Assembly: GCF_027942865.1 (NCBI RefSeq)
Contig: NC_134514.1
Location: 17,345,965 to 17,409,964, forward strand
Reading direction: 5' to 3'
Length of the DNA: 64,000 nucleotides
Source of the DNA: Odontesthes bonariensis
Lineage: Eukaryota; Chordata; Actinopteri; Atheriniformes; Atherinopsidae
Below are positions 9,492 to 64,000 of the stretch, in pieces. The stretch's first letter is position 1; every line of letters begins with the position of its first letter. The notes beneath the pieces were generated by a model that worked only from the letters and a program-made list of their open reading frames with translations, was not told the origin of the DNA and did no database searches. Position numbers and translations under genes: made by a program.

Positions 9492-11341
9492 TTAGTGAGA
9501 AACTTGTGCTTGTGCTTCACTAAGGATCTTGGTCAGTCTTGGTGGCAGGGAGGCAACTGCTGTGATCAGGCTCTTCTCCAAGCTCAGTCTGTTTCTCTGC
9601 TTTGTTTTTATCACAGTCATTGCAGAGAAGGAGGCCTCACATAAATATGTTGAGGCAAAGGGTAGTAGCTGCTCCAAAGCTTTCTGCCCCAGGTCAGGGT
9701 GCTCCTGCTTCACACACACCCAAAACTGTGTGAGTGTGGATGTGGCAAACGTCATCTGGAGGCCACGGTCAGATGACACTTCCAAGAGCTCTTCCTGATC
9801 AGTGACAGGTAGCTTGCTTGTGTTTGCCTCAGACAAGAGAAATGAGTCTCTGACCCAATCCAGCAGTGCAGATTTCTCCTCTATGTCAGGAAAGTAGGAA
9901 TGAAAATCTTGAATCAGTTTGGTCAAATGTCCCACTATGATGGATATGACTGGAGCTCTGTTCACATCCTCACGAGAGAGAAAATCATTCACCTGAGGAA
10001 AGCAGGTGAAATTTCCCTGTGCACAGGCCCTTCTCCACAGCTCTGCTTTCTTCAGGAAGCCTCCCACCTTGTCATACAGGTTTAAAATGCTGGTGTCCTT
10101 GCCCTGCAGAGATGTATTCAGTTCGTTCAATTTGCTGAATACATCTGCCAGGTAACACAGCTTTGCCAGCCAATCTGTGTCCTGGAATAAGGTGGCATGG
10201 GGGGATTTGTGCTCAGTCAGAAAGGTGGTTATTTCAGCTCGTAATTCCAACAACCGGTTGAGTATTTTTCCTCGAGAGAGCCAGCACACTTCTGTATGGA
10301 GCAGCAGCTGTGTGTGTTCAGCACCCATATTTTCACAGATGCGGCGAAAAAGGCGTGCATTAAGTGGCCTCGACTTGATGAAGTTGACCACTTTGATGGT
10401 GTCATTTAAGACGTCATGTAACTCAGGGCTCATTTTCTTGGACGCCAATGCCTCCCTCTGTATCACACAGTGAGTCCACTTCACGTCGGGATTTTCCTTT
10501 TTAATGTGCGCGATGAGTCCTCTCGTGCGGCCCGTCATTGATGCTGCTGCGTCCGTGCAGATGCTGCTGCAGGATTTCCAGCTGAGGCCGTTTGCACAAA
10601 GTTGTTGACAACATGAAAAAATATCCTCTCCTGTTGTTTTCCCCTCGAGAGTTTTGCAGAAAAGTATGTGCTCATAAATGTCGTCAGTATCGACGTATCT
10701 GACGAATCTGACGAAAGCAACAAGTTGTGCATTTCCACTGACATCTGTGGACTCCTCCAGCTGGAGGGAAAAAGAGTTGCTACAACTTGATCGACAATAT
10801 CTGTTCCCATATTTTCTACTCTGCGGCAAACGGAGTCATTTGACAGAGGCACAGTCTTGAATTTCTCCGCTGCGTTTTTGTCCAGCATCGTCTCAGCCAA
10901 CACAACAGCAGCTGGAAGAAGCAGGTCTTCACCTATAGTGAACGGTTTCTTCGCTTTAGCTATGAGCAAAGACATCGCATAAGAGGCCTCCAGGGCTTTG
11001 GCTGATGTTGTGGAGGCTTTCCGCATTGTGTCTTGAGATAACCTGAATTCCGAAAGTTTTCTTTTAAAAAACTCAGGTTCCCTACCAACGTTTTTGTCTT
11101 GAGATGACGCTGGAGGTGCGCTGGCTTCATTCCACTGTTAGCCAACTTATCCCCACAGAAAAAACACAATGCCATGGGAGGATTGGAGCTGGTGGACGTG
11201 AATCCCATTAGGGCGTATTCTTCCGAATACTGTCGGAATTTTGGGGGAGTCTGTTTTTACCTTCTTTGTCATCTGTCCCTCTGTGTTCTCAGCAGCACCG
11301 CTGCCGCGCTTTAACCAGGACTCCATTGTTTGTGTTGTCAA
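9492..11341 (-). pseudogene. hAT transposase relic, ZBED5/SCAND3-like, frameshifted
   Basis: Read from 11,341 down to the stop at 9,492, the pieces give an N-terminal stretch beginning MESWLKRG, a BED-type finger (CFFCGDKL then HLQRHLKTK), a helical segment, the hAT core (EESTDVSG, CTDAAASMTG, HCVIQREALA) and the C-terminal dimerisation region (LPFASTYLCEASFS). This order is that of BED-finger hAT transposases and of the host genes ZBED5 and SCAND3 derived from them. The frame is broken at least three times, near 11,205, 11,030 and 10,770-10,830, so no single product can be made. It sits inside the hAT element, so it is an inactive transposase rather than a domesticated gene. The last 445 codons are still open, which suggests moderate age. 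Confidence 0.85.
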
Positions 11342-11812
11342 GGCGACAGTGGTTTATTTTGTCTATCAAGTAAAAGGCAAATGCTGCGAATTCATGGATA
11401 TCAGTCCCGTCACTGTTACGTTGCACGCTCTAGTAGCCAGTAGAACGCCGCCATTTGGGTACCTGCCAGCTGTGTTTGTAAACATACCTGAACATACATG
11501 AACTTATATTAATTGATATTTATAATGACTTTTGAATTGATGCTATTTTTTAAACATATTTTTCAAAATCTCAAGTACCCCCTGGAATGCCTCCAAGTGC
11601 CCCAAGGGGTACGAGTACCCCCATTTATCTAGCAATATTCTAGAATGCGCTGCTGAGGGTGGCAGCACGTTGGAAGCTCTGTACCTCACATTGAGATTTT
11701 TCTTTTTTCTAAATTCATTCCTGTTATTTCTTGGAAGAAATTGCATTTTTTTGGACAACTGTTCCTTCCTGCCTTGGATGCTGTGCAGCTGGATTGATTT
11801 TTCCCAACACTT

Positions 11813-14800
11813 TTGTATATTTACTCTTTTGTTATGATGCATAACCATAGCAACAAGGTGGTTTACAACAGGGAGCAGCTGATTAACATTGGAAAAGCAG
11901 AAATAATTCGACAACTGAAGCTAGAAATCCCACTGGAATTGAAAAGGAGGCGTCGTGGATGCAGAGCAGGAGCAAAGAGGAGAGAAAGAAAGAAGAAGTT
12001 CAAACCATCTCTGCCATCCGTCATCATGGGCAATGTAAGATCGTTAGCTAACAAGTTGGATGAACTTCTAGCCTTGACAAGGACTCAGCAAGAATATCGG
12101 GAATGTAGCATTATGTGTTTTACTGAGACATGGCTGCAGGATCATATCCCCGACTCCAGCGTCTCCCTGCCGGGCTTCCTGACTGTACGAGCAGATCGAG
12201 ATTTAAAGAGTAGCAGGAAAAGGAAAGGGGGTGGATTGGCAGTGCTTGTCAACAACAGATGGTGTCACCCAGGACATGTTACTGTGAAGAGTCGTCTCTG
12301 CAGTCCTGACATTGAACTATTGGCAGTAAGTTTTTGTCCATATTATTTGCCAAGAGAGTTCACCAGTGTTGTTTTGGTGGCTGTTTACATTCCACCCTCA
12401 GCTGTTGCCGACACTGCATGTGATGTCATCAGTTCCGTTGTTGCTAAGATACAGACACAGCACCCCAATTCTTTTGTGGCAATATCTGGTGATTTTAATC
12501 ATGCCTCACTTTCTGCTACACTGCCAACTTTTCAACAGTTTGTCAGCTGCTCTACCAGAGAAAACAAGACATTGGATTTGTTTTACACAAATGTCAAGGA
12601 TTCATACATTTCCAAATCAAGACCTCCCCTGGGTAAATCAGATCACAACCTTGTTTTTCTCTGTTCAGCATATAAACCCCTTGTCCAGAGACTACCTGTC
12701 ACAAAAAAGACTGTTAGAAAGTGGTCACAGGAAGCTGAAGAAGCCTTACAGGGTTGTTTTGATGCAACCGATTGGATTTCTCTTTGTAAGCCACATGGAG
12801 AGGACATTAATGCCATGACTGAGTGTGTGACTGACTATATAAACTTCTGTGTGGACAACACCATCCCCACCAGAACAGTGAGATGTTTCCCTAATAACAA
12901 ACCCTGGATCACCAGTGAGCTAAAGGAACTATTGAACAAGAAAAAAAGAGCCTTTAGGGAGCGAGACAGGGAGTTACTGAGGAGTATACAGAAGCAGCTC
13001 AAAGTCAAGATCAGAGAGAGCAAGGAGGTGTATAGAAAGAAGCTTGAGAGTAAACTGCAGAGGAACAATATCAGAGATGTGTGGTCAGGAATGAAGAAGC
13101 TCACAGGCCTCAAGCAGAGGGAGGATCGGATGGATGGAAGTCTGGACAGAGCAAATGAGATGAACACATTCTTCAACAGGTTCAGTTCAGGAACAAGCTC
13201 ACCATCCTCTCCTCCTGTTCCCAGCCAAAGAGACATCCCACCCTCCTCTGACCCACAGCTTTCCTGTAACATCTCCACCTCCACCTCAGTCATGGATTCT
13301 TCTGCTTCCACTAGTTTGTCTTCAACCAAATCAGGAGATGCTGCTGTCCCCTTTGCCTCCCCCTCCCACTTTTCTGTTTCTAGAAGTCAGGTGAAGAGGC
13401 AGTTGGAGAGACTGAACCGGAACAAGGCTGCAGGTCCAGATGGTGTCAGCCCCCGAGTCCTGAAGGCCTGTGCAGAGCAGCTCTGTGGGATTCTGCAACA
13501 CCTTTTCAACCTTAGCTTGACCCAAGAGAAGGTACCACTGTTGTGGAAGACATCCTGTCTGGTTCCGGTACCAAAGAAAACTCATCCTTCAGTCATCAAT
13601 GACTACAGACCTGTTGCCCTGACATCCCACATCATGAAGGTCCTGGAGAGACTCCTGTTGACCCACCTGTGTAAGCAGACCAGCACATATCAGGACCCCC
13701 TGCAGTTTGCTTATCGCCATGGAGTTGGAGTTGAAGACGCTATCATACACCTGCTTCAACAAACCCACTGTCATCTGGACAAAGCAGGCAGCACTGTGAG
13801 GATCATGTTCTTTGATTTCTCCAGTGCATTTAACACAATCCAGCCTGATCTGCTTCGTCTGAAACTCCAGAAGACTCAGGTGGAGGCCTCAACAATCACC
13901 TGGATTAATGACTACTTGACAAACAGACCACAGTTTGTCAGACTGAAGAATTGTGTGTCTAACCAGGTGATCAGCAGCACAGGAGCACCACAGGGGACTA
14001 TACTTTCACCATTCCTTTTCACTCTGTACACTTCAGACTTCCAGTACAAGTCAGACTCCTGTCATCTACAGAAATATTCAGATGACTCTGCAGTTGTCGG
14101 GTGTATCAGAGATGGACAAGAAGCTGAGTACAGAGAGCTGGTGGACCGCTTTGTGGCATGGTGTGGGAACAATCATCTCATCTTGAAAGTTAACAAAACA
14201 AAGGAGATGATTGTAGATTTCAGGAGAAACAGGGTCAGATCAAACCCTGTTTCCATCATGGGAGAAGAAGTGGAGGTGGTTGAGGAATATAAATACCTTG
14301 GTGTTCATGTGGACAACAGACTGGACTGGAGACACAACAGTGAAGCCATCTACAAGAAAGGACAGAGCAAACTGTACTTCTTGAGGAAGCTAAGGTCCTT
14401 CAAGGTTTGCTACAAGATGTTGCAGATATTCTACAAGTCTGTTGTTGAGAGCGTCATTTCCTCTTGCTGCACGGTGGTGTGGTGGTTAGCACTGTTGCCT
14501 CACAGCAAGAAGGTTCCAGGTTCAACACCCAGCTGGGGCCTTTCTGTGTGGAGTTTGCATGTTCACCCCGTGTATGCGTGGGTTCTCTCCGGGTACTCCG
14601 GCTTCCTCCCACTGTCCAAAAAATCATGCATGTTAGGTTGACCACCTGCTGGTGGTGGTCGGAGGGGCCGATGGCGCCGGTGCTTGGCAGCCTCGCCTCC
14701 GTCAGTGTGCCCCAGGGCAGCTGTGGCTACAACACAGTAGTCTGCCACCATCAGCATAGCACTTTGAGATTCCGTATGAAATGAAAAGTGCTTTACAAAT

Positions 14801-36009: not shown

Positions 36010-39000
36010 TTATGGTTGTTCTTGCTGCAGGAGGCACAAGAAGGGTTTTATAAGGCGGAAAATGGACATCAAACATGTTCTTATACAACTTTATCAATTT
36101 TGTTATAACTTATCCATTCTCACCTGCATGCTGCTATGGATCCAAGGCAGAAGACTTCTGACTTTGGCGTAAACTCCAGGCTTGTTTTTATTTCCACAGC
36201 CAACTCCCCAGCTTGTGATCCCCACCACATACCAGCGGCTCTCTCCCTTACACACCAGAGGTCCGCCACTGTCACCCTGAGAAAATATAGATCATGGTCA
36301 GAGAGCAAACATGTTACTTTTTAATCGGTCAGATGTTCAAAATACAGTGAATTCATTACTGTACAACTGTCATGAGACATTGACTGCTCACCTGACAGGA
36401 GTCTTTGCCTCCCTCCAGGTTCCCAGCGCAGATCATGTTCTTTGTCACCGCGCTTCCATACACTTTGCGGCTGTTACACTCTCGTGTGTCAATGATGTCC
36501 ACAGTCACTTCCATTAAATCTCTGGAAACAGTCCCTATTTTTTTTTTTACGAGAGAAAAACAATCTCTGATCACATCTCTTTGGGTTATTTGAATATTCA
36601 AACAGTGCCTAAGCATATAATTAGCTTAACATTAAATTGCAGTGTCGCAATCAGTAGACGGTGGTCCCAATTCTTCTTTATTCTTTTTTGTCTCCAGTTT
36701 TTTTTTAATGAAACATGTTGCATTCTTACATTACCTGTAGATTGTTCGATGGTTTTCTGTCCTTGCCCATCAGTGATTACCACTGAGCTTTCCATAAACG
36801 TGTCTCAATCAATGTCACTTACTGTATGTATAGAACAGACAGGTTACTCCCTGATTGCTTATCCATCTTCATTTAAAGGGTCTGAACTTTATTCTTGTCT
36901 TCTGCCTGCCTGTTTCCCCTCTGATGATAATGTACCTGCTATTACTTTAACAAATTTGCTCGTCTGGTCTTATTGAATTCTTGCAAATGTCAATCCTTCA
37001 TTTTGACTCATTATAGTTTATTGGTAATAGTTTTGCAGAGTGTCTTAGGGATGCTTGAAATGTAATGCCGAAATCCATTCAGAAAGGCCCAGTATCCTGA
37101 ATGAATGGAATAACAGTATTCGCATTTGTGCTCTCATCTGGTCTCAGTTTACTTGTTCGTACTCTATGTGTATTCATATCAATATTTTGATAGTTTCTTT
37201 AAAATAACTGTATTATTCTCTTATGATTATTGTGGAGAACTCTGGTTAAAAGACTAAAAGACTATTTTTCACATCATCAAAACCATCCGTTTTAATCCTT
37301 ATGTAGGATCAAATAATCAAAAACCACATGAACTTTCACTTTTAAGACACATATGCAGCTTTACATTAAGTAAGGAATATATCTGTGTAAGTTGCACAGG
37401 ATAAAGAATGAGTGTGATAAAGAATCACTGTGTATCGTTGATTAAGTTTCTAATGTCTGACTGGCTCCTTATTCTGGTCTACCTGAGCCTGCTTCAGTAG
37501 TGCCGAAGCCTGAGGTCCAGCACTGGGTTCCCTGGAGAAACTGCTGGTCAAAAGCTGGCAGGCAAGCTGGCTGCACTTTATCTGAAAAACACAAAAAAAT
37601 GCCTTTAACTTCTCCAAACTAATTGGTGGCCTTGGGGCTCCAAAAGATTAAGATGCAAATATGCCCAAACAAACTGGGCAGAGCTTATCATATATCCAGT
37701 GTGAGTGTGAACTCAGTTTAAAAGCTTTGACTCAACAGGAAGAGGACCTCTGCAATCACTGTCCTGCAGATTTAGTTTTTTTACTCTGTTACACAATTTG
37801 GATTTTTTTTCTTTGCGTTCCTTAGACAGTATGTAAACATTTCAACATTTCACAATGACCCTATCCTGTTCTAATTTCCAGATAAAAAAAAAACATTTTT
37901 CATGTAAAAATTACACAGTGTGAATAAAACTGTAGGTTGAGATCATGATAATATTGCTATGTAAGTTGGAACAGACCGTTCACTTTCTCCAGCTTCAGCT
38001 AAGATTATTTTTCAGAGATTTTAGATATTTGTTTATTTGTTCAATGGTGTTTCAACTGTAGAGTGAACATTTAATGACAAAGGCTTTTTGGCCTGTGTCA
38101 ACCACCTGAAGAACCGCCTTTAAGGAATTTACCTCATTGCCTCACTACACAGACTCCGTTTAAGCAGGAAGAGTTTTTGCTACAAAATGCAACAGTTGTC
38201 ACTATTCATAAAGTTGATGCAATCAAGTTAAAATTCTTTCCTGACTCTTCCTTCTCTCCATCTAACACGTGCCCAGGACACTAAAAACACAGACAAATGA
38301 GTGATTATCTCGTGACACTGGAACCTGTTAGGAAATGTAACATTGTAGGCTGCAGAGTTAGGTCTCTATATGAATGTGTGTGGGGCAGAATTATGGGCAA
38401 GTCTAAAGATGACAGCAACTCTGACGAGGATCAATCTATGATGGCAAGATGACTATCTGAGCATTTTAAAGATGGCCAGTCATTTGGGTGTTTAAGAGAT
38501 AATATCAACCAAGACTGATCCAAGAAAAAACAGGTGGTATGTTTCAAGGGCACCTAAGGCTCACTTATGCACATAGGAAGCAAAGACTTGCTTGTTTGAT
38601 CCAAACAGAAGTCAAGTCAAGTCAACTTTATTGTCAATGCTGCCATATGTGCAGGACATACACAGAATTGAAATAGTGTTTCCCTCTTATCCCTGATGCA
38701 AAACAGCAATAAACATGAAGTAAAATATAATATATATATAAAGAAAAATATTAAAAAATATATATACAAGCTAAAAGATATACAAAAACAGCCGTGGCAA
38801 ATCTGTATGTATATATATATATATATATATATATGGCAGTATAAACAGATTAACAGTATAAACAGAATTTAAAGTATGAACAGTGAGCTATGTACAGTTT
38901 GTGAACTATAGAAGACCCACTGTAGCAGAAACTGCTACTACACTGCTACTTCTGAAAAAAAACTCAAGGCCTCTGGGCCATTCAAGTTGATGCATTTTTG

Positions 39001-42000
39001 ACACCTACCTCCTTAATAAACTTTGTTGCAGATCACTTACGCCTCTTACTGGTAACTCCATCCCCTAATGGCAGAGGCCTTTTTTAGTGGGATATGGTGC
39101 CCTCTCACAATGCAAAAACTGTTCAGGAATGGTGTGATGAACATGGATGTAGGATAATCTCAAACTGATCCAAGGTGTTGGTGCCCAAAACTACCATCTA
39201 AAATTTCTATCTTCATGGATCAGAGGTGTTATGGTGGTAATATAAGGGAACTGTGGCTGTAGGATTGAAAGTTGGGTGAAATAAACTTTGTAGTGAAGAT
39301 TTGACTGACCAGTGAAAGTAACAGGAGATCTAAGTTTGAGTAGAGCAATGTCTTGGTCATTTGTCGTGCTGTTGTAGTTCTCATTGAGAAGGATCTTCTT
39401 AACCAGGTAGGGCTTAGGTATTCCATTTAAAGACACAATTCCACCATACACTTTCCAGTCCTCTGGTGAGGAAGCCATTGAGCTGTTACGGTGGAAGAGA
39501 AAGAGACAGTTTGGTGGAAAGGAATGGACTGGTACTGATTTAGTCTTTTTTTTTTACAGCACAAAGCACACTGCATTTCAACTTCTAAGGTTTATCACTC
39601 ATTCATTGTAGTAAATCATTGTAGTAAATTCATTGTAAATTCTCAATTATAAAATGTAGAAAATTAACATTTCAGTTCATACTTCCGAATAAACTTGATT
39701 ATTCTATATCAAGTTTACAGGGGTAGAGAAAAGTAAAAACCTCCAGTGTCGAAATGTTACTGGGGCACTTTCTGTGACAGTCACCTTGGAAAACAGTGGG
39801 CAGCAGTGAGGGCAAAATCAGGAGAGATCAGGACTCCTCCGCAGACATGGGATCCTCTGTAGTGAAGCGATAGTTGCCACGGCCACTGTCCTGCCTTAGC
39901 TATGCTGCCCCCAATGATCCTGGATGAAGACTGCTGCTTACCACAGTCTGGGAGGAAGAAAAACATTCATAATTTCCATGAAACCGGCTGTAATAGAATG
40001 ATCAAAATTAGTTTTTTCTTAAGAAAATCCTATAATCAGGGACTGTAATCTATTTGGAATTTTAAAGTAACAAACCAAGTTAATCATTTTGTCTTTTTAC
40101 ATATAAGAAGAGCTTAACCTGAGTTAACTGCCAGGCAATGTATTTAATGCATATACATAATTCAGTATGTTTTAGTTCCCAAATGCAATGAATAGACCTA
40201 AAATATGTAGAGTTTTGATGTTTGCCTCCTAAGCCCTGAAACACAGTTGGGCGAGATGCTTTTGGCTTTCCCTGAACTCAGAGCCAACAGGTGGATGAAA
40301 GGATAATGAAAATCGACCGTTTGTACAAACAACAACAGCAGTAGTATTTGGCGTCAGAATAGCGTTTAAGCTAAGTAGTATAACACATGGCATAGTGAGA
40401 AAAAGATCAGCTTCAATTGTTCCTTCACAGATGTACAAGTTGCGCTACATACAATATTGCACTGTCAGCCCACAATGATTTCCACAGGGGTTTCTCTGAA
40501 TAAAATCAGATTTGTGTTTTGTTTTTATGGTGACAGATAGATGGTGTGAACTTGTTGGCACCATGTGCATGAGAGAGAGGCACAGTGAGAGAAAGAAAAT
40601 GCAAGCGTGTGTGTGACACATGACTGTGAGAACAGATGGAGGCTCCTTACCCACACACTGCAGGGAGACAGTCTTCTGGTTTGGACAGGAAGAACTGCGT
40701 GATGCCGCAATGAGAAAAACATGCCAGTTAGCATAAGTGCACGCAGCTAACCAGCAGATTTTGTATGACGAGATGACGAGGCTCTGTACCTGACATTTAC
40801 CAGACCTTGGATAGGAGAAGATGATCTGCTGGTCAGTATTAAACCAACGGACTGCTGGGACTGAATTGCTTTGCTAGTATAAGACCTGGAGACAGAGAGA
40901 AAGGTCATTCAGAAAGTGAAGGGATAAACTAGCACACACAGAGACCATTTTGTCAAATCAATGCCTGATTGGGTCTGGATACTCATTCTGATTCTGTCAG
41001 ACTAAGACACCCCAGTGATACCTGTGGAGAATCAAATCAAGCCCAATTGCACAGCAGCAGGTGGGAAGAAATTAGATGGAACTTTGTGAGTATATTACAA
41101 GTTGGAAATAGAGTTCATCATGCTCACTGGCTGCAATTGAAATTGGGTCTAGGAAAATAACTGGAAAAAAAACTCTTTCAAGAAGCCTGCCTTATGTCTG
41201 AATAAAATTGGGAAAAGGCAATAAATATCAATGATGGTGTGATACTGACACAAAATGATTATCAGCAGTTAACACTTTTGCCGTTCAGCATAGATATATG
41301 TGACAAAATTATGTGAGTTAAAGTGGTGAGTCTTTACTGTCTGAATCCAAGCTGAGCACAGATTTGGTCGGCATAGTTCTTATCCCAGTCTTTGTAACAT
41401 ACTGGTAGGAAACGGCCATCTTGAGATGTCCTGACCTGCAGACTGCTGTCCTCACCAAACCTCACTGGGAAGACATGGAGAGAGACAGGAGGAATATGGA
41501 GTCTTTAACTCGTGTGCTGCTGCAGTCCAGTATGCTGTTGCACATTGTATGCATGCACATATTTCACAATAAAAAACATGCTAAGAGCACAAAGGTTTCT
41601 ATCCAATTATTTATCAAAAACTACATCAATGTCATCCCATCCCTTCCCTTCCTGCACCAGGTAAGGATGGGAATTGAGAACCAAAAAAGCTTATCAAGTC
41701 TTCTAACGACGCTGGTGATTGCTGGCAAATAGACACAGAATCAGTAACATCATTCACGCGGGCCTCTCAAATCAGCATTGAATGTGAGAATCACAAATCA
41801 CGCTTTTCACACTGTCATGTCACAGGTTTCTTTTTCTCAAATGGTGAAAAACAAATTCAAAACACGGTGCAGAGCAAAGCAGACCAATCTTGCCAATTTG
41901 GCATGTTTTTCAGATGACGCTGTGGGTTATCAGTTTAAAAATGTTCTCGGTAGTTAATACGTAATCTTAATGGGAAACTTTTCAGGAGTAAATTGTGACC

Positions 42001-45000
42001 TGTTTTACAATGTAAAATAAGAAAAAAAAAGTATGTGAATGAGAGCAGCTTTATGGGAAATTTGACTGTAATAGTACCCTGTAAATTTGAGCACAGGGAT
42101 TAGGAGAAAAATATGTGAACAGCAAAGCAGAATGCGATAGTGCTCTATGTACATGCAGCACAAGGGCGTTGAGCCAACATATCACCTGACAAATTTTATT
42201 CAGTGTTTACTGTTTCACTTTTACTGTGTTGTTAGGGAGACCGAGAGTCAAAGTCAATGAAATTTCAATTCCGAATATGTCTGCGTATGTATTGCAGAAT
42301 TGAATAAAGCTGACTTTGACTTTTATTTTGACGCACTGTCGTGCAAACACCAGCCAAGTTCCTCACCTTGGTACGGGAGAGAGAGCCAGAGAGAAAGGAA
42401 AATTCTACCCAAAGGATACCTTGTAGACGTCCGCAGAGAGCTGACAGACTAACCACAGCCGACCCAAGGACCCAGGCAACGGATTCTGTGAAAATATCTT
42501 AACCCACCCCACCTCGCCACACATATTTGGCATAATTTATTTTCCTACCTCCCGATACATATTTCATATGAAATTAGGTTCTCATAACATACATCTACAT
42601 TTCCTGTTCGTCATTTAAGGTTTATGTTTTGGTTAATATTTCCATGAATATTTGGCAGTTATTTTCATTGGTGATAAACTCAAGCCAGAACTATTGAGTA
42701 GCATTGTGAAACTGATTGCAGTGCCCGAAAGATTTTTTAAATTTTATAGTGAGCATGTTACAAAAATGAAAACAATTAATGGATTACTTCTATACGGATT
42801 TAATTCATTGTATAAACACCTGGCATGCAACATGATTCATAATAGAAAAGAAGAACCCCTTGGAAGGTAATTCATTGCTAATACTATTCCAGAATACATG
42901 TGCCTTCAAAATATTGTTATTCCCATCTCAATAACAAACCTACATAGCCATGAAAACCCAACATCCAACATCAGCTTTTATCCATATGGCTGTTCAGTGT
43001 ATTGTCAAACCTTCTTAGTGATCTTGCCTCGCATTAACGTGATTCTTATAAAGTCAATGTGTTTGCATGCGCTCACTCACCACAGTTTATTTCATCAGTG
43101 CCCAGTTGGCAGTCTCGTATGGCGTCACATTGGACGGTGTTGTTGGAACAGGTGTCATACTCTGGCAAAGCAGCATCTTCACTACTTCCATCTTTGTCAT
43201 CATCATAGAGGATTGATGTTGCTGCTGTCCTGGTGCCATAATGAACTGTGGATGTGGTAGAGTAGAGGTAAGAAGACATACAGGGTACCCTTATCGTTAT
43301 GGTTAACCAAAACAAACTCTATTGGACAAATTAGAGCAGCAAAATGTAGATTTCATAAAAAAAAAAAAAAAAAATCTCTGAAAAACATCCTGTTTTTTGT
43401 TTGTTTATAACTGTCCTCTGCTCATTCAACTTGTACACCTTTCCGTAAACAATTAAACCGGCAAACTTGTAGCACAGTGCAAGCTGAAAAAAGCTGAAAC
43501 TAAATCTTCCCGTAAAATTATATGAAACTAAAAACATTTTGTAAATGTTAGCACACTTCAATCAAAACAGAAATAAACATCTACCATCTAATAATCCTAT
43601 AATACAAACTATTTCTAGAGCTTGGCAACCGAGCCGTTGCTCTCGTTGACTTATGACTGGTGTATAAAGCTTTATGTACCAGAAATAAAATTACAGTTTA
43701 CATGACATTGTATTAAGTCACAATTGCTTTAATTATGAGAAAAAAAACAAATAAAGATAAATATTGACAAATCTACTGATTGTAAAATCAATGAAAAAAC
43801 TTTTACAGACATATTATTTTCATTTTATTGCAACAGACTAAAGAATAAATTAGATTGTAAAATGAATTATGTCAATGACAATGTCCAGTGATCTGTATGA
43901 ATAAACAAACTATACCTCCTAGCCAGATGGCGACTCCCAGGAGAGCAAGCACCAGCACAGCTGCCCCTGACCCCTTGTAACCCTGCGCATTACTCTCACA
44001 GCAATTCTTTTTCTTTCTGGGGGCTGGACAGAGACAGTGTGGAAACATACACAGCAATGATCTTCAGGCTTTGCACACCTATGTTCATCGTATTCTCAAA
44101 CCATGGGACGTGCTGGTATCACTTACGTGGGATGTTCTGTGTGACTTGAGGACCAGCCCCAGCAGGTGGATACTGGGGGATGTAATGCAGTTGGGTTGGG
44201 ACAGCCAGGCCAGGACCTTGTCCATACACTACCTCTTCATAAGACTTGAGGGGGGGTTGAGCGTGCACAGCAACAGAGTAGTAAGGTGGAGGAGGGGAGT
44301 CCTGAAATAGAAAGGAGAAAGTAAATTCTTTTTGATAAGTTTTATCAAGATGAGATCCATCATAATGATCTCTCAAAATGTGATAAGAGGTCTTTATCGT
44401 TAATGTGTCATTTATCCTTGGAAATATAATGTCTTGCATTATATAACAGGTATGATAATATCATTAGATAGACCAAAAATAGAGAGGCAAATCACTTGCA
44501 TGTGCGCAGCTGCCAAGACTGAAGTAACCATCAAGTCCACGTTAAAGTAAAAAACTAGAGGAACAAGCTTGGTGCACAAAAACACAAACGGTGTATCCTG
44601 GCAACAGTATCTTAAAGATCAGGTGAATGAATTCACTTCCTTCTCTTTTTTAGCCCTATATCTCTCAGTTCTTTTTTACTCAAAGTTTACAGTAGCTTTA
44701 TCTGGTATTTTAGACAAATAACTTACTCAATACTTTGGACTTTTTGGTAAAGCGGGTCAACACCTGCCTCACAAATGACAACTGATAAGGAGAATTAAGT
44801 AAACTAATACTGAAGTTTTTATAATAGAGTGATGCAGATGCTTGTACCCACTTGGCAATAGCTCTACCATGACCTTGTTGGGAATGGTTGGTGATAAACA
44901 CACAATGGGTTACTCAGATTGTCAAATTCTCCTTAATAAAACAAAAGTTTCTTATTCTGTGAGTAGTATGTTTTTGCTGCTCTGCAACATTTTGAAGGCT

Positions 45001-50754: not shown

Positions 50755-53700
50755 ATGGATATGAAAAACAAAATGCCATTTCTTGTCGTCCTTTTTTTCT
50801 GCATAAACCATGTGTCAGGTAAATAATATCTTCATACTCTTCATATTAAATCTGACAGGTTCATGTGGTTGTTTCAGAATTGTTTTCTATTTGATTTTTA
50901 GTCAATTCAAATGTATCCCGAGTCTCTTCTTTATTCAGCATTATGGGATTGTTCATCTGTGAAAACTAAAAAAGTATCTGGTACAAACTTATGATGAGGA
51001 ACTTTTTTAACTTGTTTATTTATTTTCCAAACCTGTGTTGGTAATATGATTTTCACAGTGGGTCACATGTATCAATTTTTTCTTCAGTTCTGATTAATAA
51101 ATATCAAGCACAGAACTATGTCAAACTCTGTTCCCTTTACAAAAACCCCACAGCGTCATTATGACCAGAGAGCACACAAATGCTCTGCAGGATCACGTCT
51201 CGTTTCGACGACCAAACTTCCCTTTTCTTTCCCTTGAACACAACTGTACAAGAATATCTAAAAATAACTTTTTCAGCATATGATTAGCGTGATTTTGCGT
51301 AACGCTTGCTGACTGGAAAGAAAAGACGTGCACACATTACCCCCTGTCCTTGCCTCTTTACACTGGCTGCCTGTTAATTTTAGGATTCAGTTTAAGCTTT
51401 TATCAATTGCTTTTAAATGTGTAAATGGTTTGGTACCACCTTATTTATCAGAGCTTCTACAGCTCCACAATTCTGCTAGGGCGCTTCGGTCATCAAACCA
51501 GCTGCTCCTGGCAGTACCTAGGTCCAGGCTCTCCACTCGTGGAGACCGAGCCTTCTCAGTAGCAGCTCCTAAGCTGTGGAGCAGCCTACCTCTCTATGGT
51601 AGAGCTACACAGTCTGCTGAGCATTTTAAAACACTCCTCAAAACGCATCTCTTCTCCTTGGCGTTCACTCCCAGCTGAGCCAGGAATCTTGGCTCTCTCG
51701 CCTTCTCTTTATCCCTCTTACTCTCTTTTTATTTTCACTTTTAATCTTAATTTGTTTTATATTGAATGATTAGTAGCCCTTGTGTTGTATTTGTTGTTGT
51801 AGTGTTTAGGATTATTTTTATTATGCTTTTGCTTCTGTACAGCACTTTGGTCGACTGAGGTTGTTTTAAATCTGCTCTATAAATAAACTATGACTATGAC
51901 TATGACTATGACTATAACAATTTGATATTACATTGTATGAATATTTCCTGTTTCTCCCATTTTTTGTGATAGGGATGCATGTCCCTCAGCCCGACAAACT
52001 GGAGGTGAACATTTCAGATGGGGAGGTAACAGTACTGTGGAAAGATCCCGTTGGCGCTCCCTCAAATTACTGGTACAACGTACAAATAGCAAAGTATGTT
52101 TAATCTCAAAATATATACAGTAACCATTTTACTCCAGAGTTTCAATGTTCGGTTTCACAACTTCCTTCTGTTTTATAATTCAAAATACCTATTTTTATCT
52201 GTTATCTTCTTCACCTTTTATCGGCATATAATTGTTGTCCTTGTTAGTCTTATGTTTGGACAATTGATTTGAACCATTTTGTAAAAGCAGTTTTAGAAAT
52301 ATGATACACTTTAATAAAAAAAAAGTTTTTATTCAATTAACCCTGTGTTAGCCAGTGACTCCTCCCTTTCCGTTTGATGATTGCAAAGTTTTCTTTCTTC
52401 AGATATATTGACAAGTGGTCTGAATTATCCAGCTGCTCAAAGATCAGAAGGACACACTGTCACGTGGGCAGTTTTGTAGATGACTATAGTATGGCCTACA
52501 AGGTCAGAGTCCAGCTGGTCACAAAAGATGATGAGTCTAAATGGACATCCAAGAAATTTCTGCCAAATCACAGTAAGCACTTTCAGTTTGGTGTGTCACA
52601 GTAAAAATGATTTACCCATACAATATTGTTGTCATTAAAGGTTATTTTAACCTCTCTCTGTTTATAGGTGATTTGTTGCCTCCCTCCTTCACTTTGTGGG
52701 CTACTTCCAGCACCCTCACAATTCATGTCCATGAAAAACCCATTCTGAAAAAACTCTTTCCATTTGGAGTCACATACACCATCTATTTGGAGGAAATAGG
52801 GCAAGACAATACGGTGGGTATCAGAATTCAGTTTGAAGACACAATGTCTGAGATAATGTTAGAAACACCCCTTATTCCACCAACACCAATAAAACACAGG
52901 ACATAAAATTCTGACTCACTGTATAATGGTTAATTAATTAAGAAACAGACAAGAGATACATCTAGATACAATGATCATTGTTATCACCTTTCAGACTACA
53001 ATTGCCTACCTGACAGATGACGTGGGGGCGGATCAGAGGATGAAGCTTTTTCCTGCTCTCCATTGGGGGAAAAAGTACTGTGTCAGCCTCAAGGTAGAAG
53101 GCAATGGAGCTCTGTCAACCAGCAGTATATCCGACCAACACTGTGTGAACCTCCCGGAGCAAGGTAATAATGAGACGAGAATGAGGATGAACAGGCAAGA
53201 GACAGCATCAGTTAAATCTGATTAACAATTCTATAGCTCCATAATGAAAGTCACAATGCTGATGCAAATATACATATTGTTTCTAATCGCCGCTGGTGCT
53301 AGTATAAACATGCTTACACATGATTTAAGCTCAACCTCCTGGAATTGGAGGATCCTAATACCTAATACATTTGTTTGTGTTTTTTGCTCTTTTCAGAATG
53401 GTTCATAATTGCTGCATCATCTTTATCTATTCTGGGTGTTCTCGCAGTGATTGCTATAATGGCAAGCATCGTATTATGTTATCTGAGACCTTCAGTGAAA
53501 ATACCGGCTTCTTTGGTAATTATAAAAATGTGCAGATTATTGGGAAGTATTGTAGAATCAGAATTATGTGAAAATAATCATTTAAAAGCTAAAGAAGATA
53601 TCCAAGCTCATTAACAATTTCGCATTCTTGATATTACTCTGAAATAAATGGCTCACTGGTCCTACCTAATACTGTTCCCTTTTTCTCTCTTATTTACATT

Positions 53701-56247: not shown

Positions 56248-57947
56248 ATATATATCAGTGTGTGTAGTAAATCCCAGTTAACTCATGATTTAACAAAGGG
56301 GGCAACTATATTTCTATATTTTCACATAGTGCCTGGTTGGTTTGGATAGCTTTTTTCCCTTCATAAATTAAATGATAATTTTAAAAACTAATTTTTTTTT
56401 GTATTTACACAGGTTATCGTTGTTTGATTTATTAGATGATCTGAAACAAGCCGAGTGACAAAAAATAAAAAACAGAAGAAATCTGTAAAGGGGCAAGTAC
56501 TTTTTCACAGCACTGTGTGCATACATTCATGATGACCATGTTTATTGGTCACGTTAAGGTTACTATATATATATACTGAATATACATATATTGTATATGA
56601 GTGTGTATATGCTAGAAAAAGATTATAACCAAATGCAAAAACTGTGAATGTCAAGATTACCATTCATGCATATCCAATTACCAGAGTAAACACAGATGCA
56701 TGATATATTTGTATCAGTGCAAATCAGCTGACAAAAATAGCTTAATCAAAAAAGCAGAACTTTCTACTTTGAAAAAGTAGATATAGAGCTGATAGTGTAC
56801 TATATGGCCAAAGAAAGCACTCAGGTGTTCAACAGTATGAGAGGATCTACCATGTATGTTTTGGTTAAAGTGAAATATGTTGTCCAAACACAGTGGGGAA
56901 TCCAGGGAGATGTGAAATCAAACAACCAAAACACCAAAATAATTTCCTTTCTGATAAAGCCTTCGAAGCACTATCCTAGAACATGCAGCTCAGTTATGAC
57001 TGTTTTTCACTGAATGCAGCAACATATTACCTTTATTCACCCTACTGCAGACAGCTCATATGTGGAAAAAGTATCAGACTCAGACAAACACATTTTAGTT
57101 TCATTTAAGGGAAATCAATGAGACATTTAAGTTTCGTCAACCATAGAAAGTATCAGAGAGGCAGTAGATATGTGAATTTGGAGGGAAGTCACCTGCAGCT
57201 TACAAGAAAACTGATCCGCCTGGTTGATGCGACTGAGCTGTTGAGATATTCTGCCTTCACCTCAGAAGGTTCTCACCAGCAGCGCAATGCATCTGCTTTC
57301 CTGTGTGTGCGTGCGTGCACATAGTCAGCTTTATATCAGGAGAAATACCACAGCGAGGTGTCAGTGTCTTATGACGCATATCAAAACTGACAAAGTGACA
57401 TTATGATATCTATTTCCATGTTATTTGGTCATGTTAAAGTTACCAAAAAAAACATCTTAAAACATCTTTGCATATATGTATTTACATGTGATACATAATC
57501 ACATGCATTGCCTTTTTTTTGTTTCTAAAATAAGTAAGCAATAAGTTAAAGATGTAACTTAAAAACAAAGTTGGTCAAGCGGCAGGTACATGGTTCAAAG
57601 GCAGTTACATACAAAATCATACATCAATCAGAGGAAATTTAAGCAAACATCTTACATAGGTTTAAACATCAACTTTAAGTACAGCAGCAAAACACAGACA
57701 ATTATACACACCAAAAACTATGTTTTGTGCAGGAAAGTGACAGTTCAGTGGCCTGCCTTCCATCTTGGTCATTTTCAATCGCACCGAAATTGTTATTTTA
57801 CTGAACCGCTGATGGAGAATGGAGGCGGTGACTTCTTTAAGCCGACCTTGCTGTAAAATCAGGCATACCGAGGTTACCCATGCAACCGCAAAGTATTTAA
57901 AAGGAGGAAATAATACTTGCAAAAACTGAAAAGAAAAAACAATCTAC

Positions 57948-58767
57948 TTACGTGAGCATTTTGTCTTTCAGGGTTGGCTCTACAAAATAAGGGGAAATAT
58001 GAATATGAGCTTGTTTTATTACAATAATAGACAGATTTTTATCAGAGCAGTCTTAACTGTTGCTTGGCATATACTCAACATCACATATGTGTACATGTTA
58101 GTGATATCTATCTCTGAGGTTTTACATCTGATCATAGAGTGTGGCACAAACAGCATCGGAAATTTCATTGGAATATGAAAGAAAATACACCTGTTCGTAA
58201 CTTCGATGTCCTTGTTACGCAGTAAACTACTCACCCTTTTTCTTGCAGCACTTTTTCAACTTTTTGCATTTGTGCTTGCAGCAGAATTGTACAATACCAA
58301 TGGTGAAGAGGATGGCCAGGATCCCAAAGCCCACAGCAATCCCGACTGCCGTGGAGTTTACTGTGAATACCAACAAAAGGGGTTGTTAGACCACAACCAC
58401 AGAATAACACCTTTCAGAGATGAAATTGTAAGGTCAATCTCGACGAAGACGTCTAGCAGAGACATCTTTTTGAATGTACATGCGGATTTGAAACACATAT
58501 TCTAAAACTTAAACGTTAATGCATGTTAACATTTAAAGCATGTGGAAACAAGCAGAGCTGGTGTTCGATTGTTGTGTGAGACAGAATCATTAACCCAGCA
58601 ACGCATCCAAATACAATGACAATAAAGAAGAAAATCAGGAGAAGTAAGGTACTTGAATAGAGACACATTTGAATCAAGCAATTCCTGGAACTTCTCTGTG
58701 TACATATCTCTTACTTTAACAGAACTGAAAGTGCCTAAGCTGTGAGTTTCTTACCACCATTCCCCAT
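57948..58767 (-). CDS. small single-pass membrane protein with Cys/Lys-rich tail, possible SMIM35 orthologue
   Basis: Three coding exons on the minus strand: 58,755-58,767 (ATGGGGAATGGTG|gtaag), 58,235-58,360 and 57,948-57,979 (TAA). Intron phases agree (1 and 1) and the join gives 56 residues. An N-glycosylation sequon NST (6-8) precedes one membrane span (about 9-30, with a GIAVG motif). Then follows a very basic tail with five cysteines (CCKHKCKKLKKCCKKK, 31-46) and the end EPTLKDKMLT. Charge predicts an outside N-terminus and a cytosolic tail, and the cysteines suit palmitoylation. I do not recognise the family. In human the gene next to IL10RA on the opposite strand is SMIM35, whose sequence I cannot recall, so that name rests on position only. 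The TAA stop overlaps a good donor (CTCAC|gtaagt), so a longer spliced C-terminus is possible. Confidence 0.62.
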
Positions 58768-61700
58768 AGCTGACTAGCCAGAATGACCGCTGTTATATCT
58801 TGTCCCTTTTCTTTTCTCCTTGCCGTCGTTTAGCTGCTGAGCTCTGTCACTCACTTACTTGACATCAACTTTTATGGAAAAATATGTCTTGATTGTAAAG
58901 AACCAACACGGTGCTCTCTTCTTCCTTCTTTGCTGACGTCTGTCTGCCATGTCCTCATACCAGTCATTCTTTTAAACCGGTCCATCTTCTTTCTCCATAT
59001 CCTTACTGTCTTTTCAGCCTCGCTTCATTAACAGACATCATGACAAAGTGGCTCTCATGGCCTTTTGCCTTCACCGTCGTGCTTTAAAAGCTCACTCGAG
59101 AGTACACTGAACTTGTTACCAAACTATTCACCACTAATGATTGTTTCATGGAGGTCCAGGAAACTCAATTACATTATGAAAATCTTCAACTTGTGTTTTA
59201 TGACTCTCAAAAAAAAGAAATGCATTTTCTCACCAGGATACTATCGAACATACAAACAAGTCAGTGACTCCTGCTAGATAACTGAGTCATCGCATCTTTT
59301 TTTCGAAGCGGAACCATTTTAGATGGAACCATAAAATTGTCAGAATTGTACTAATTATCATACAGTAAATATCTTCAGATAAAGACTAAGGCTGTTTTGC
59401 TTTTGAGGGATTTCCAGCTTTCATAACACATAATCCCCATATTTGAATAAATTTGAATTTGAATAAAGTACTGTAATAACTGTATCTGTATAATCTGTGT
59501 AATGTAAAAGCTCTGCTGCAGTGTACTGTTGTACGGGAATCCGTGTTGACCTCACTATAAAATGAGGCATTATTTAAACAGTTTCACATTGCATTAAAGT
59601 GAATGAAAGTAAACAACAACCCATTATAAATTCTCTGACATGCTCAAAGGTGTGATCTTAGTAGTTTTATTTTGAGCATTTGTCTGTTTGGCATGTCATA
59701 ATTGTTTCCTGAGCATATAATGAGAGCAATGTATTAAGTCTAAAACACTGATGTACTGCTTCAACAAGACAAATATAAATACGTGAACATGCACAAAAAA
59801 AAGGCACAATGACGAACAACGTCTACAAAGCTAGTCGAGAATTGCTGTAAAAACAATTCTGAAAAACATACCACTCATCCACAAGATGTCATCAGTTCTG
59901 AGGAGTGAAGAGTTTCCTGTTATTTACCTTGTGTGAGTGAGTCAGTCTGACATTATGGGTCTACCTGCAAACATGAGCCACAAAATATTTTCAAGGTTTC
60001 ATAGAGACGGAGGTCTTTCATTCAAAAACACAGAGGTGATACAGCATATCTTTTCTTACAGAGTTATGACTTACAATAAAGCCTCATGTTCCTACTCTGT
60101 ATAGAAAATAAGCACGTTTTTCATTTCGATCTCGAACACCAATTTCATTGTTTTGCAACTGGTGGCTGGCAGCAATGTTGTTTTTCTGTGTGGATTAATG
60201 TCCATCTGCATATGAATTTGAAGACATTTTGGGTTACGGGACAAGATTTTGATCCTAAAAGATTCAATTTTCGACATAGTGTAACAACTACTGCCCAGTC
60301 ACATTTGCTGGCTTTGGCTGCATAAAAATAGAAACTGTATGAAAAGCAAAATAGGCAAAAACCATGTGCCAAAAGTGAGAGTCAGTTCTTACTCTCAACG
60401 CATCACATACTGCTGTCATGTCAGGACACCTTGAAAATCAAGGCAGTTCATATCCTGAAGTGGCAGTTTTTCAACACATTTGGTAAATGTTGTGAAATGG
60501 TAATTTTTTGTTATCATCACTCAACTTGATCGCTTGACCCTAACCCAACCCCAACCAAAGGGTAGTTTTGGTACCTGAACCTAACCATTTAATGAGTCAG
60601 GATGGCCGACTTGAAGCATCACCATCCCTCCTAACTCGTCATGAGGAAGAGTTTACTGTTTGTTGGTAAGGTGATATTCAAGAATAATGTTGAAATTGTG
60701 TCTCTCAACAGTTTATATTGGGATTCACTTTTTTATACTGTATATCTGCAATAAAACGATGACAGGGGCACAGAATAGGAAATCTACACCTAGATATCTG
60801 ATATAAGTTGGCTCGGAGCCCTGTCTCTGATTCCAGAAACACCTCTAACTCAGAAGTACCAGGATATAATATAATACCAGGAAGTATTACTTACTTCCAA
60901 TACATTATGGGAGCAAAAATTTCTACTTTTTACTTTACTAGATACTTTACAGCCCCAACTGTAAGCACTTTTAAATCCAGGTTAAAAACATTTCTCTTTC
61001 GGTGTGCTTATGGTTGAGTTTATATTTTTCTTTTCCCCTCTTCTTTGATTGCTTTTAACTGTGTTTTAATTTTTATTCTATTTTTTTTCTCTTTAAATCT
61101 CTTGTTTTTATGCTGCTTTATGCTGTTCTTTTCCTTGTCTTTATGTAAAGCACATTGAGTCGCCTGTGGTATGAAATGCGCTATATAAATAAAGATGCCT
61201 TGCCTTTCCTTGCCTAGATCTGAAAGCTTAAAGTCTCAGTAAAGCAAAATTAGAGATTTGCATGATAAAAAGTTATATGTATTAGACAATGATTGCTTAA
61301 AACACATTAGCCATGTTTTATTTGATTGTGCAGCTGGACTTTTAAACTTCCAACTTTTTTTGGCTCGGGTTGTTTAGGACAAATCTAAAATCACAAATCC
61401 ATGGCAGGGGATTGTATATAAAATGTATTGAATAGGGCAGCATACCCGCTGAGAGAACCAAAGTTTAAATATTAACTATGGTCACTTGAGGTCCTGTGGA
61501 TTCATTTGAGCAGACCTGCTGTGAAAGAGAGTTCAGGGTCACTACCAACACCCACCTCATTATTCACCTGGTAATTCTACCAACTTTTACCAAAGATATC
61601 TGGGATTAACTGGTACACCAATGAATTGCTCGTTTTTCCTGCAAGGAGACTATGACTCATTGGCAAATAGGATCAGAGGGTTAGTGTGTGACAAAGAGCA

Positions 61701-62934
61701 CAAAGCAAACAATTATCTTGACCGTAACAAACTGGTAGTCAACTCTCTGGCTGGGTGTGAAGGCAGCAACCAGATATCTGTGGAGGTTTTCAAGGAGCTG
61801 CAGCTAACAACGTACACATTCATCATGAACTGTTTCTGGCATGAAACTCAAGTGACAGGGAGGGGAAACAGACAGACAACTGCCAAGGTAGAGGCTGAAA
61901 ACACAACAGTGCATACACTGTATTTATTTTCTTTAAGTTCCATGAGAACAATTCAATAATCATATATATTTGACTGTTTTTCCTTGTATTGAATAGTTTC
62001 TCCAACCATGAGAAAAAGTCCCATTTTTTGTTTTCTATTTTGGAAAGATGTATTGTAAACATGTCCAGTTTTACAAATGCAGTCTGTACCTTTGTTTGTA
62101 TGTTAGCTGATACTGTGAGTAAAAGACAATGTATTTCTGGGAAATTGTTAAGAGATTTCTCGTAAGCATTATTGCATATTTCCCGTAAAGAGTAACTCTC
62201 TACCGCTACATCACACAGTAAACATGTCACTGATCTTCACAGTGATTAGAGAAATAATAATAATAGGTCATCAGGCAGCAGAGCCTTTTCTCTAGAATGA
62301 TATTATTTTTCACTCTCTCATGCATCAGAGACTGCTACGGACAACACATATTGCATAATATGTGTTACCTTTCACATTTCTGATCAGACAGCACAAGTAC
62401 TTCCTTATGCTGAAACCCCTTTTATTTATCAGGAAGTGGCTGACCAATGATACAATAGCATCAATAGAGAAAAGTTCCCAAAGGAGAGTTGTGCAACAGA
62501 GTTGTTTACAATTTGATTGAACCACCACATAATGAATTCATTGCAAAGTAGATAGATTTGTAATAGTTTTATCTTGTGCATTGAGGGAAATAAAAGATCG
62601 AAAAGAATATCTTAACGTCTATTCATAACAGAGCGGCTTTTTGGGTCATTAATTATTTAATTGTAACCATTTCTGATAATATTCCAACTAATTCTAAAAG
62701 GAAAAATGGTGTGACCGTACGTGAGTGCGTGTGTGTGAGTGAATGATGTAGAGAGACAGAGGGGAGAGAGAGTTTGTTTGCCGTGGTGGTGGAGGGCAGA
62801 GAGGTGGGATGAAGGAACTCTGAGGGGTGTTGCCTGTTGAGACGATAAATATTGCTTCAGATTGTCCTCAGAGAAAAAATGCACAACTTCACTCTGGGAT
62901 TACTTCTTCGACCAGTTTTTTGCTCACCTTCAGG
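58768..62934. other. gene-free stretch past the small membrane gene
   Basis: No coding exon is supported. It contains AT-rich DNA, a LINE 3' scrap at about 60,925-61,215 and an unremarkable 112-codon open frame at 61,621-61,959 without splice or homology support. The promoter of the small minus-strand gene should lie just above 58.8 kb. Confidence 0.45.
60925..61215 (+). mobile_element. LINE 3' scrap
   Basis: The peptide APTVSTFKSRLKTFLFRCAYG, the final words of an L2-type reverse transcriptase, is followed by AAAGCACATTGAGTCGCCTG, ATGAAATGCGCTATATAAAT, AAAGATGCC and CTTGC units. This is the usual 3' end with a short tandem tail. Confidence 0.72.
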
Positions 62935-64000
62935 TGTTTTACTGACAAAAAGCAGCAGACTGAAACCTACAGTGCAGGTGAGGAAGACTGCAGTGCAGTG
63001 AGCTATGATTTCTTATGATGTCTTCCAGATGTTTCTTTATCTGATTTTATTCCAAAATCCAGCTCCAAATACGCAATCACACAACCATCATGACATCCTT
63101 ATGGTTGTGTACTTTTCAACAACAAAATCATAGCGTGGGAGAAAAGAATGAACAACTTTTGGGTGAGTTATAGATGTGAGGTTAGATGAACTAACCTCAA
63201 GCCTGAAATAAACTTGAGGTTGAACCACTAAACTTTAACTTTTCATCAACAGGTCTGATAAGGATACACGTTTCTTTAAAGGGGATGTTCCAACTTGTAA
63301 ATCAATTCTGTCTTCATGATTTTTAGTGGAAATGTATTGAATAATATCAACAGATGATAGAAAGCTGTCAAGATCCAAAAACCAATCAAAGTCGAGTAAA
63401 ACTTAAGCTCTATTTGAAGTAAGAGATCAAATTCAAACAGTATTTTAATCTGTTGCTGCTTTATTTTGAAAGTTGGTGTAAAATAAGAATTTTCCAAACA
63501 TGCTCTTCGACACTAGGCCTTATACGTAAATAGAAGGATTGGTAGGCTTCTGATTGTGAGTAAAAACATCCCAGCAACAACCCTGCATGGATGCGTTAAT
63601 ATGTAACTTGTTTGACCTGAATGCTGTTCAGGAAGCTTGCAGAATAACTAGTTGTCCTTGAGATGTCCAGAGAATCCAGTTTCAATGGAAAATACCTTTG
63701 AAGCAGATGGTTTTATTGACAAGAAATAAAGAATAATGAATTAACAAATTTCTTCCAGCTGATGTGGACTGTGGCTATTGTGAGTTGATATCTGTTTATA
63801 AACTAAATGACGTAGTTTGATTATTCAAGCAGTGAAAGCTGAGATTTTAAAAAACTCAAACAAGGGTGTATATTAAAATCATTCGATCTCTCCATTGCTT
63901 CTTTGTGCAGCCACTGCTACTGAAGGTAAGGCTATTGAAGGTCATGTGATTTATAAGCTGTGTGAGAAATGTGCAGCAGCAGGGGAGGATAAAGTACAGT
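62935..64000 (+). other. possible 5' mini-exons of the next gene
   Basis: Three segments have good acceptors and donors on the plus strand: 62,935-62,978 (ACCTTCAG before, gtgagg after), 63,760-63,780 (TTCTTCCAG before, gtgagt after, 21 nt) and 63,912-63,926 (TTTGTGCAG before, gtaagg after, 15 nt). In one phase the last two read ADVDCGY-STATE. Alternatively an ATG inside the second starts MWTVAI-PLLLK. Neither reading resembles a protein I know. TMPRSS4 would be the next gene by human order. The window ends before this can be tested. No other content was recognised here. Confidence 0.2.

What the first reader, a model, noticed from the sequence alone, without database searches (positions are those of the whole stretch)
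57948..58767. Uncharacterised 56-aa membrane protein gene with a cysteine/lysine tail
Three tiny exons, too short for ordinary gene finders, join in frame with consistent phase-1 introns. They encode a short extracellular sequon, one membrane span with GxxxG spacing, and a 16-residue tail holding five Cys and nine Lys. The design resembles FXYD-like or SMIM regulators, but the FXYD motif is absent. No function is known to me. Position and strand match human SMIM35.
Basis: partly seen in the sequence, partly recalled or inferred. Interest (0 to 1): 0.7.

Follow-up and report, generated by a model that had tools for sequence, protein, structure and literature searches.

The report
Fish SMIM35-like small membrane protein gene

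Summary
In detail: three minus-strand pieces (58767-58755, 58360-58235, 57979-57948) join in frame into the stated 56-aa protein. It is unlikely to be chance: gene models with at least three exons and a membrane span, at these splice strengths, arose in 1 of 3000 resampled sequences, and in 0 of 3000 with a basic tail as well. The stop TAA lies inside CAC|GTAAGT, donor rank 10 of 563. Splicing there to a fourth exon (57850-57793) gives 74 aa ending KVGLKKSPPPFSISGSVK. Neighbours are fxyd6, a TMPRSS13-like protease and an il10ra-like receptor. A paper lists the human genes as FXYD6, TMPRSS13, IL10RA, an unnamed gene, TMPRSS4, so smim35 is the best label. No SMIM35 sequence could be compared and no relative or RNA was available. 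FXYD membership is not supported. The sequon lies about three residues from the span and is probably not glycosylated. The likely working is by analogy only: a fatty-acylated, lysine-rich anchor that clusters with acidic lipid and a partner protein.

The parts
58755..58767 (-). Coding exon 1, ATGGGGAATGGTG (M G N G + 1 nt), G at -3 and +4; an in-frame TAG lies 9 nt upstream; donor GTG|GTAAGA
   Evidence: donor rank 12 of 563. Two other phase-1 donors with an open ATG were found upstream (58859, score 4.62, stronger than 3.79 here; and 59872, score 2.58); both ATGs have T at -3
58235..58360 (-). Coding exon 2, 126 nt, phase 1 to 1: sequon, membrane span (about residues 9-30, by eye) with G11xxxG15, Cys/Lys tail (residues 31-46)
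   Evidence: acceptor rank 14 of 560, donor rank 2 of 563
57952..57979 (-). Coding exon 3 as revised, 28 nt, phase 1 to 2, ending CTCAC|GTAAGT
   Evidence: acceptor rank 2 of 560, donor rank 10 of 563
57948..57979 (-).
57793..57850 (-). Proposed coding exon 4, 58 nt with stop, adding KVGLKKSPPPFSISGSVK; an alternative in-frame acceptor at 57808 would add GSVK only
   Evidence: acceptor at 57850 score 1.75, rank 48 of 560; at 57808 score 4.9; one search lists the 60-aa form
57032..57037 (-). Candidate polyadenylation signal AATAAA, first one after the exon-4 stop

Best explanation
This is, by position, the orthologue of the unstudied vertebrate gene SMIM35: four tiny coding exons giving a 74-aa single-span membrane protein, N-terminus outside and C-terminus in the cytosol. 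Shown here: the exons, frame, splice sites, hydrophobic span and neighbours. Inferred: topology (lysine-rich side in the cytosol), S-acylation of the five cysteines next to the span, contact of the lysines with acidic lipid, self-association through the glycine face, and action as a small regulatory subunit of, or clustering factor for, another membrane protein or a secretory-vesicle membrane. The last step is a commitment by analogy and I give it about 0.3 on its own; that the gene is real about 0.9; that it is smim35 about 0.75; that the fourth exon is right about 0.75.
For: Exons and frame; splice ranks; chance test; four-exon model. Neighbours: fxyd6 (FXYD6 chain 8d3u, E 1.3e-30), protease pieces with TMPRSS13 as best PDB chain (6kd5), a class II cytokine receptor next door on the + strand. 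Human gene list in PMC2956734 (passages). Same build known to work this way: synaptotagmin-1 has five palmitoylated cysteines in its span region and a juxtamembrane lysine cluster needed for large multimers on acidic lipid (PMC8694047, abstract and passages); in syntaxin-1A the juxtamembrane stretch controls palmitoylation of the span (PMC9183232, abstract). SMIM35 is listed as a marker of human GnRH cells (PMC13090377, one passage); that these are secretory neurons is general knowledge.
Against: No RNA evidence and no sequence relative found: Pfam, PDB, genome contigs, viral contigs, though none of these is a vertebrate genome collection. SMIM35 protein could not be compared. Codon usage does not single out the frame. 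The exon-4 acceptor is only rank 48 of 560 and exon 4 has a slightly negative codon score (-2.6 bits). A stronger rival donor for exon 1 exists at 58859. The receptor's Pfam scores are under the curated cut-offs (24.7 against 27 and 16.4 against 21 bits) and its best PDB chain is IFNAR1, with no IL10RA among 13 hits; il10ra rests on tail motifs that I recall and on position. The LDL-receptor piece of the protease is also below cut-off (15.2 against 24.1 bits). TMPRSS4 was not recognised in the window.
Confidence: 0.6

Rival explanations
1. The gene is real but ends where the first reader put it (56 aa), with the GTAAGT at the stop unused or used only in some transcripts.
For: The three-exon frame is complete with a stop; the exon-4 acceptor is middling (rank 48 of 560).
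Against: The stop lies inside a donor of rank 10 of 563, and a phase-2 splice leads at once to an open 18-codon end.
Confidence: 0.2
2. A diverged FXYD paralogue born by tandem copying beside fxyd6, acting on the sodium pump.
For: fxyd6 lies about 30 kb away; small exons with phase 1 introns and a short phase 1-to-2 exon after the span resemble fxyd6 as I read by eye; a shared LFTxGI stretch in the span.
Against: No PFxYD motif; the Pfam FXYD model is not among the hits up to E 10 (its filters drop most matches above about 0.1), while it finds the window's fxyd6 at 2e-12; similarity no better than shuffles (106, 274, 308, 838 and 634 of 1000 for five FXYD sequences; the receptor's span as a control 281 of 1000); no signal peptide to the eye; the Cys/Lys stretch lies before, not after, the intron that follows the span.
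Confidence: 0.07
3. A gene unique to fish that merely lies at the SMIM35 position.
Against: Position after il10ra on a conserved stretch; strand agrees with human as recalled.
Confidence: 0.15
4. No gene on the minus strand: chance splice sites, or a plus-strand secreted peptide gene (58206-58505) of which this is the shadow.
For: The plus-strand frame is open for 99 codons from an ATG and starts with a stretch that looks like a signal peptide. Codon usage does not favour the minus-strand frame of exon 2.
Against: Chance test; the plus frame scores -17.4 bits for coding and its ATG has T at -3; a lysine tail read backwards gives Phe/Leu, which explains the look.
Confidence: 0.07

Closest known systems
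SMIM35 (formerly TMPRSS4-AS1, recalled), human 11q23.3
   Same: Position after fxyd6, tmprss13 and il10ra; minus strand as recalled; small integral membrane protein by name (rat gene name).
   Different: Sequence not compared. Of 10 papers that hold the name, 0 have it in title or abstract; passages seen in 5 give no function; the other 5 were not opened.
FXYD family (PF02038; FXYD6, phospholemman)
   Same: Small one-span protein, N-terminus outside (inferred here), basic tail with Cys; small exons; same neighbourhood.
   Different: No PFxYD motif, no signal peptide to the eye, no Pfam match, no similarity beyond shuffles.
Synaptotagmin-1 span and juxtamembrane linker
   Same: Five Cys in the span region and a cluster of Lys (PMC8694047, abstract and passages).
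   Different: No C2 domain in the 74-aa model; similarity no better than shuffles (171 of 1000, segment recalled). Analogy only.

Membership tests
SMIM35 orthologue | Lies after FXYD6, TMPRSS13 and IL10RA | tested here: met
   and the human gene list; il10ra identity partly recalled; human strands recalled
SMIM35 orthologue | Followed by TMPRSS4 | tested here: inconclusive
   Not recognised in 58.8-64 kb by eye or among ORFs, one ORF there sent to Pfam without a match; the window ends there
SMIM35 orthologue | Sequence similarity to SMIM35 proteins | not testable with these tools
   No vertebrate protein or genome collection; no SMIM35 model among Pfam hits
FXYD (PF02038) | PFxYD motif before the span | tested here: not met
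   Absent in the sequence
FXYD (PF02038) | Match to the Pfam model | tested here: not met
   Not listed up to E 10, with filters that drop most weak matches; window fxyd6 matches at 2e-12
FXYD (PF02038) | Similarity of the span to FXYD spans beyond composition | tested here: not met
   106, 274, 308, 838, 634 of 1000 shuffles reach the score for five FXYD sequences
FXYD (PF02038) | Binds and modulates the Na,K-ATPase | not testable with these tools
   needs experiment
Synaptotagmin | Two C2 domains after the linker | tested here: not met
   The 74-aa model ends after exon 4 and has no C2 hit; no separate search for C2 exons further down was made

The most novel reading that the evidence does not exclude
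A free-standing counterpart of the synaptotagmin-type anchor: a microprotein consisting of little more than a glycine-rich span and an acylated, lysine-rich linker, conserved across bony vertebrates, which clusters on acidic lipid and tunes secretory vesicles or a partner channel or receptor, for example in neuroendocrine cells.
Probability: 0.1. Interest if true: 0.6.

Novelty: new member of a known kind. Interest (0 to 1): 0.33.

Why it matters
If confirmed, it adds a fish orthologue to a vertebrate gene for which I found no function, corrects its coding end, and gives a model animal in which to remove it. Small spliced membrane-protein genes of this size are often missed by annotation (general knowledge), and the human locus draws attention: rare variants tied to triglycerides have been placed in introns of TMPRSS4-AS1 (PMC5704019, passages).

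Tried and rejected
Rfam and tRNA scans of the window: nothing. Pfam with the 56- and 74-aa forms: only hits below the curated cut-offs, best E 0.036. PDB: one hit at E 1.9, taken as chance. Scans of prokaryote genome contigs and viral contigs: 300 and 65 stretches matched a peptide pattern, none was a relative. FXYD relation by shuffles: rejected. Alternative first exons: two, both with T at -3, one of them with a stronger donor than exon 1, so not excluded. Codon usage and G+C: inconclusive; 11.7% and 8.4% of flank stretches of 58 and 126 nt are as G+C-rich as exons 4 and 2; third codon positions are 66% G+C in the first 56 codons, higher than in the neighbours (47-53%), so this is a hint only. 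Papers on the order of these genes in fish: 3, 3 and 2 listed, none of them on that subject by title; only PMC2956734 opened. A search for the glycosylation-distance rule gave no paper that I used; the rule stays recalled. I did not fold the protein: a spliced product is not read letter for letter from the DNA, which the folding tool asks for, and a lone span would tell little.

Full report
What is there. The minus strand carries ATGGGGAATGGTG at 58767-58755, a 126-nt stretch at 58360-58235 and a stretch at 57979-57948 ending in TAA. Joined, they read MGNGVNSTAVGIAVGFGILAILFTIGIVQFCCKHKCKKLKKCCKKKEPTLKDKMLT, 56 residues. Introns 1 and 2 are 394 and 255 nt, both phase 1. An in-frame TAG lies 9 nt before the ATG, which has G at -3 and +4 (sequence).

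More than chance? I enumerated models of three or four exons in that stretch, both strands, at those splice strengths: 6, of which 3 have a span, all 3 of them also a basic stretch; the three printed are variants of this gene. In 3000 first-order resamples, 22 held any model, 1 a model with a span and 0 one with span and basic stretch. With looser thresholds the real stretch gave 7 and 12 models with a span (not printed one by one), the resamples 2 of 600 and 4 of 150 with at least one, and 0 of 600 and 0 of 150 with the basic stretch. Six other 9.35-kb stretches of the window, at the strict and middle thresholds, gave none with a span; without a span one stretch gave 2 models (strict), and two gave 34 and 12 (middle). 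The strict thresholds were set after seeing the sites, which flatters that test.

Tests that did not help. Codon usage trained on 727 codons of the neighbours did not single out exon 2: 306 of 1343 open flank stretches score as well and a wrong frame scores higher. The third positions of the first 56 codons are 66% G+C against 39 and 36% for the first two, but the neighbouring genes have only 47 to 53%. For exon 1, a search of 5.6 kb upstream for other phase-1 donors with an open ATG gave two; one, at 58859, has a stronger donor (4.62 against 3.79) but both ATGs have T at -3. The protein would then start MSI instead of MGNGV; the rest is the same.

The end is probably wrong. Any phase-2 exon end before GTAA must show a TAA in frame, so such a stop is no evidence of an end. 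Splicing over 101 nt to 57850 continues KVGLKKSPPPFSISGSVK and stops, 74 residues in all. The acceptor at 57850 ranks 48 of 560; another at 57808 scores better (4.9 against 1.75) and keeps the frame, giving 60 residues. Exon 4 is 47% G+C against 37% for the whole stretch, but 11.7% of flank stretches of that length are as rich and its codon score is -2.6 bits. The first AATAAA after the stop is at 57037. I put the fourth exon at about 0.75.

Neighbours. fxyd6 lies on the minus strand from 28384 to at least about 26170; its span exon matches PF02038 at 2e-12 and the protein as I joined it matches FXYD6 chain 8d3u at 1.3e-30. A protease on the minus strand at about 36-44 kb gives two trypsin hits and a weak LDL-receptor hit below cut-off; two joined trypsin pieces have TMPRSS13 (6kd5) as best of 302 PDB sequences. 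A class II cytokine receptor on the plus strand, 50.7-54.6 kb, gives Tissue_fac at 2.1e-5 and Interfer-bind at 0.011, both under the curated cut-offs, and IFNAR1 as best of 13 PDB hits, with no IL10RA among them. I call it il10ra because its tail repeats DSG motifs as I recall from IL10RA and because of its place. A paper lists the human genes moved in a rearrangement as FXYD6, TMPRSS13, IL10RA, APOO2962.2, TMPRSS4, SCN4B and on towards MLL (PMC2956734, passages); I take the list to be in map order. That the unnamed gene is SMIM35/TMPRSS4-AS1 and that it lies on the minus strand are my recall. The candidate is thus at the SMIM35 place. Its protein could not be compared, as no vertebrate collection is on hand.

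How it may work. The lysine side of the span should face the cytosol, so the N-terminus is outside, without a signal peptide to the eye. N6 is about three residues from the span; as I recall, glycosylation needs about a dozen, so the sequon is probably silent. Two cysteines touch the span and three follow among nine lysines. The nearest known arrangement is in synaptotagmin-1: five palmitoylated cysteines in its span region, and juxtamembrane lysines needed for large multimers on acidic lipid (PMC8694047, abstract and passages). In syntaxin-1A the juxtamembrane stretch controls palmitoylation of the span (PMC9183232, abstract). By analogy I commit to an acylated, lipid-gripping anchor that clusters with itself and a partner; only the anatomy is shown. 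Zinc binding by CCxHxC is a further thought without evidence.

Known families. FXYD membership fails on the motif, on Pfam and on shuffles, where 106, 274, 308, 838 and 634 of 1000 reach the score for five FXYD sequences; an unrelated span from the neighbouring receptor gave 281 of 1000. The likeness of intron phases with fxyd6 (1,1,1,1,2 as I read; here 1,1,2) is noted, but phase 1 is common in such proteins (recalled). Synaptotagmin similarity is no better than shuffles either (171 of 1000, segment recalled).

In print. Ten papers in the library hold SMIM35, 0 of 10 in title or abstract. I saw passages of five: a marker of human GnRH cells, down in infected lung organoids, in a pig locus, in a duck muscle table and down in rat stroke brain. 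The other five I did not open. Three papers hold TMPRSS4-AS1, of which I saw passages of one. None of the passages gives a function.

Verdict. A probably real, ordinary small gene, likely smim35, with a corrected end. Its function is open.

Noticed in passing
11798-14641 +: Long open frame of a LINE-type retroelement with a reverse transcriptase domain (RVT_1, E 1.5e-27).
   Followed up: partly
9492-11256 -: Neighbouring long frames (447, 200 and 98 aa) that look like a hAT/ZBED-type transposase by eye (recalled); the two longer ones have no Pfam match at E 0.01.
   Followed up: partly
51313-51678 +: Retroelement-like fragment inside the first intron of the il10ra-like gene, by eye; no Pfam match at E 0.01.
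   Followed up: partly
28384-26170 -: fxyd6 gene in small exons, intron phases 1,1,1,1,2 as read by eye; FXYD6 chain 8d3u at 1.3e-30. Its last exons were not traced.
   Followed up: partly
58206-58505 +: Plus-strand frame antisense to exon 2 with a signal-peptide-like start; coding score -17.4 bits, taken as a shadow of the lysine tail.
   Followed up: yes
36356-44460 -: TMPRSS13-like protease gene: two trypsin pieces, a weak LDL-receptor-like piece and a proline-rich frame at 44119-44460 without Pfam match.
   Followed up: partly
62879-63926 +: Short open pieces ending before GTGAGG and GTAAGG that might be first exons of the next gene, by eye; not identified as tmprss4.
   Followed up: no
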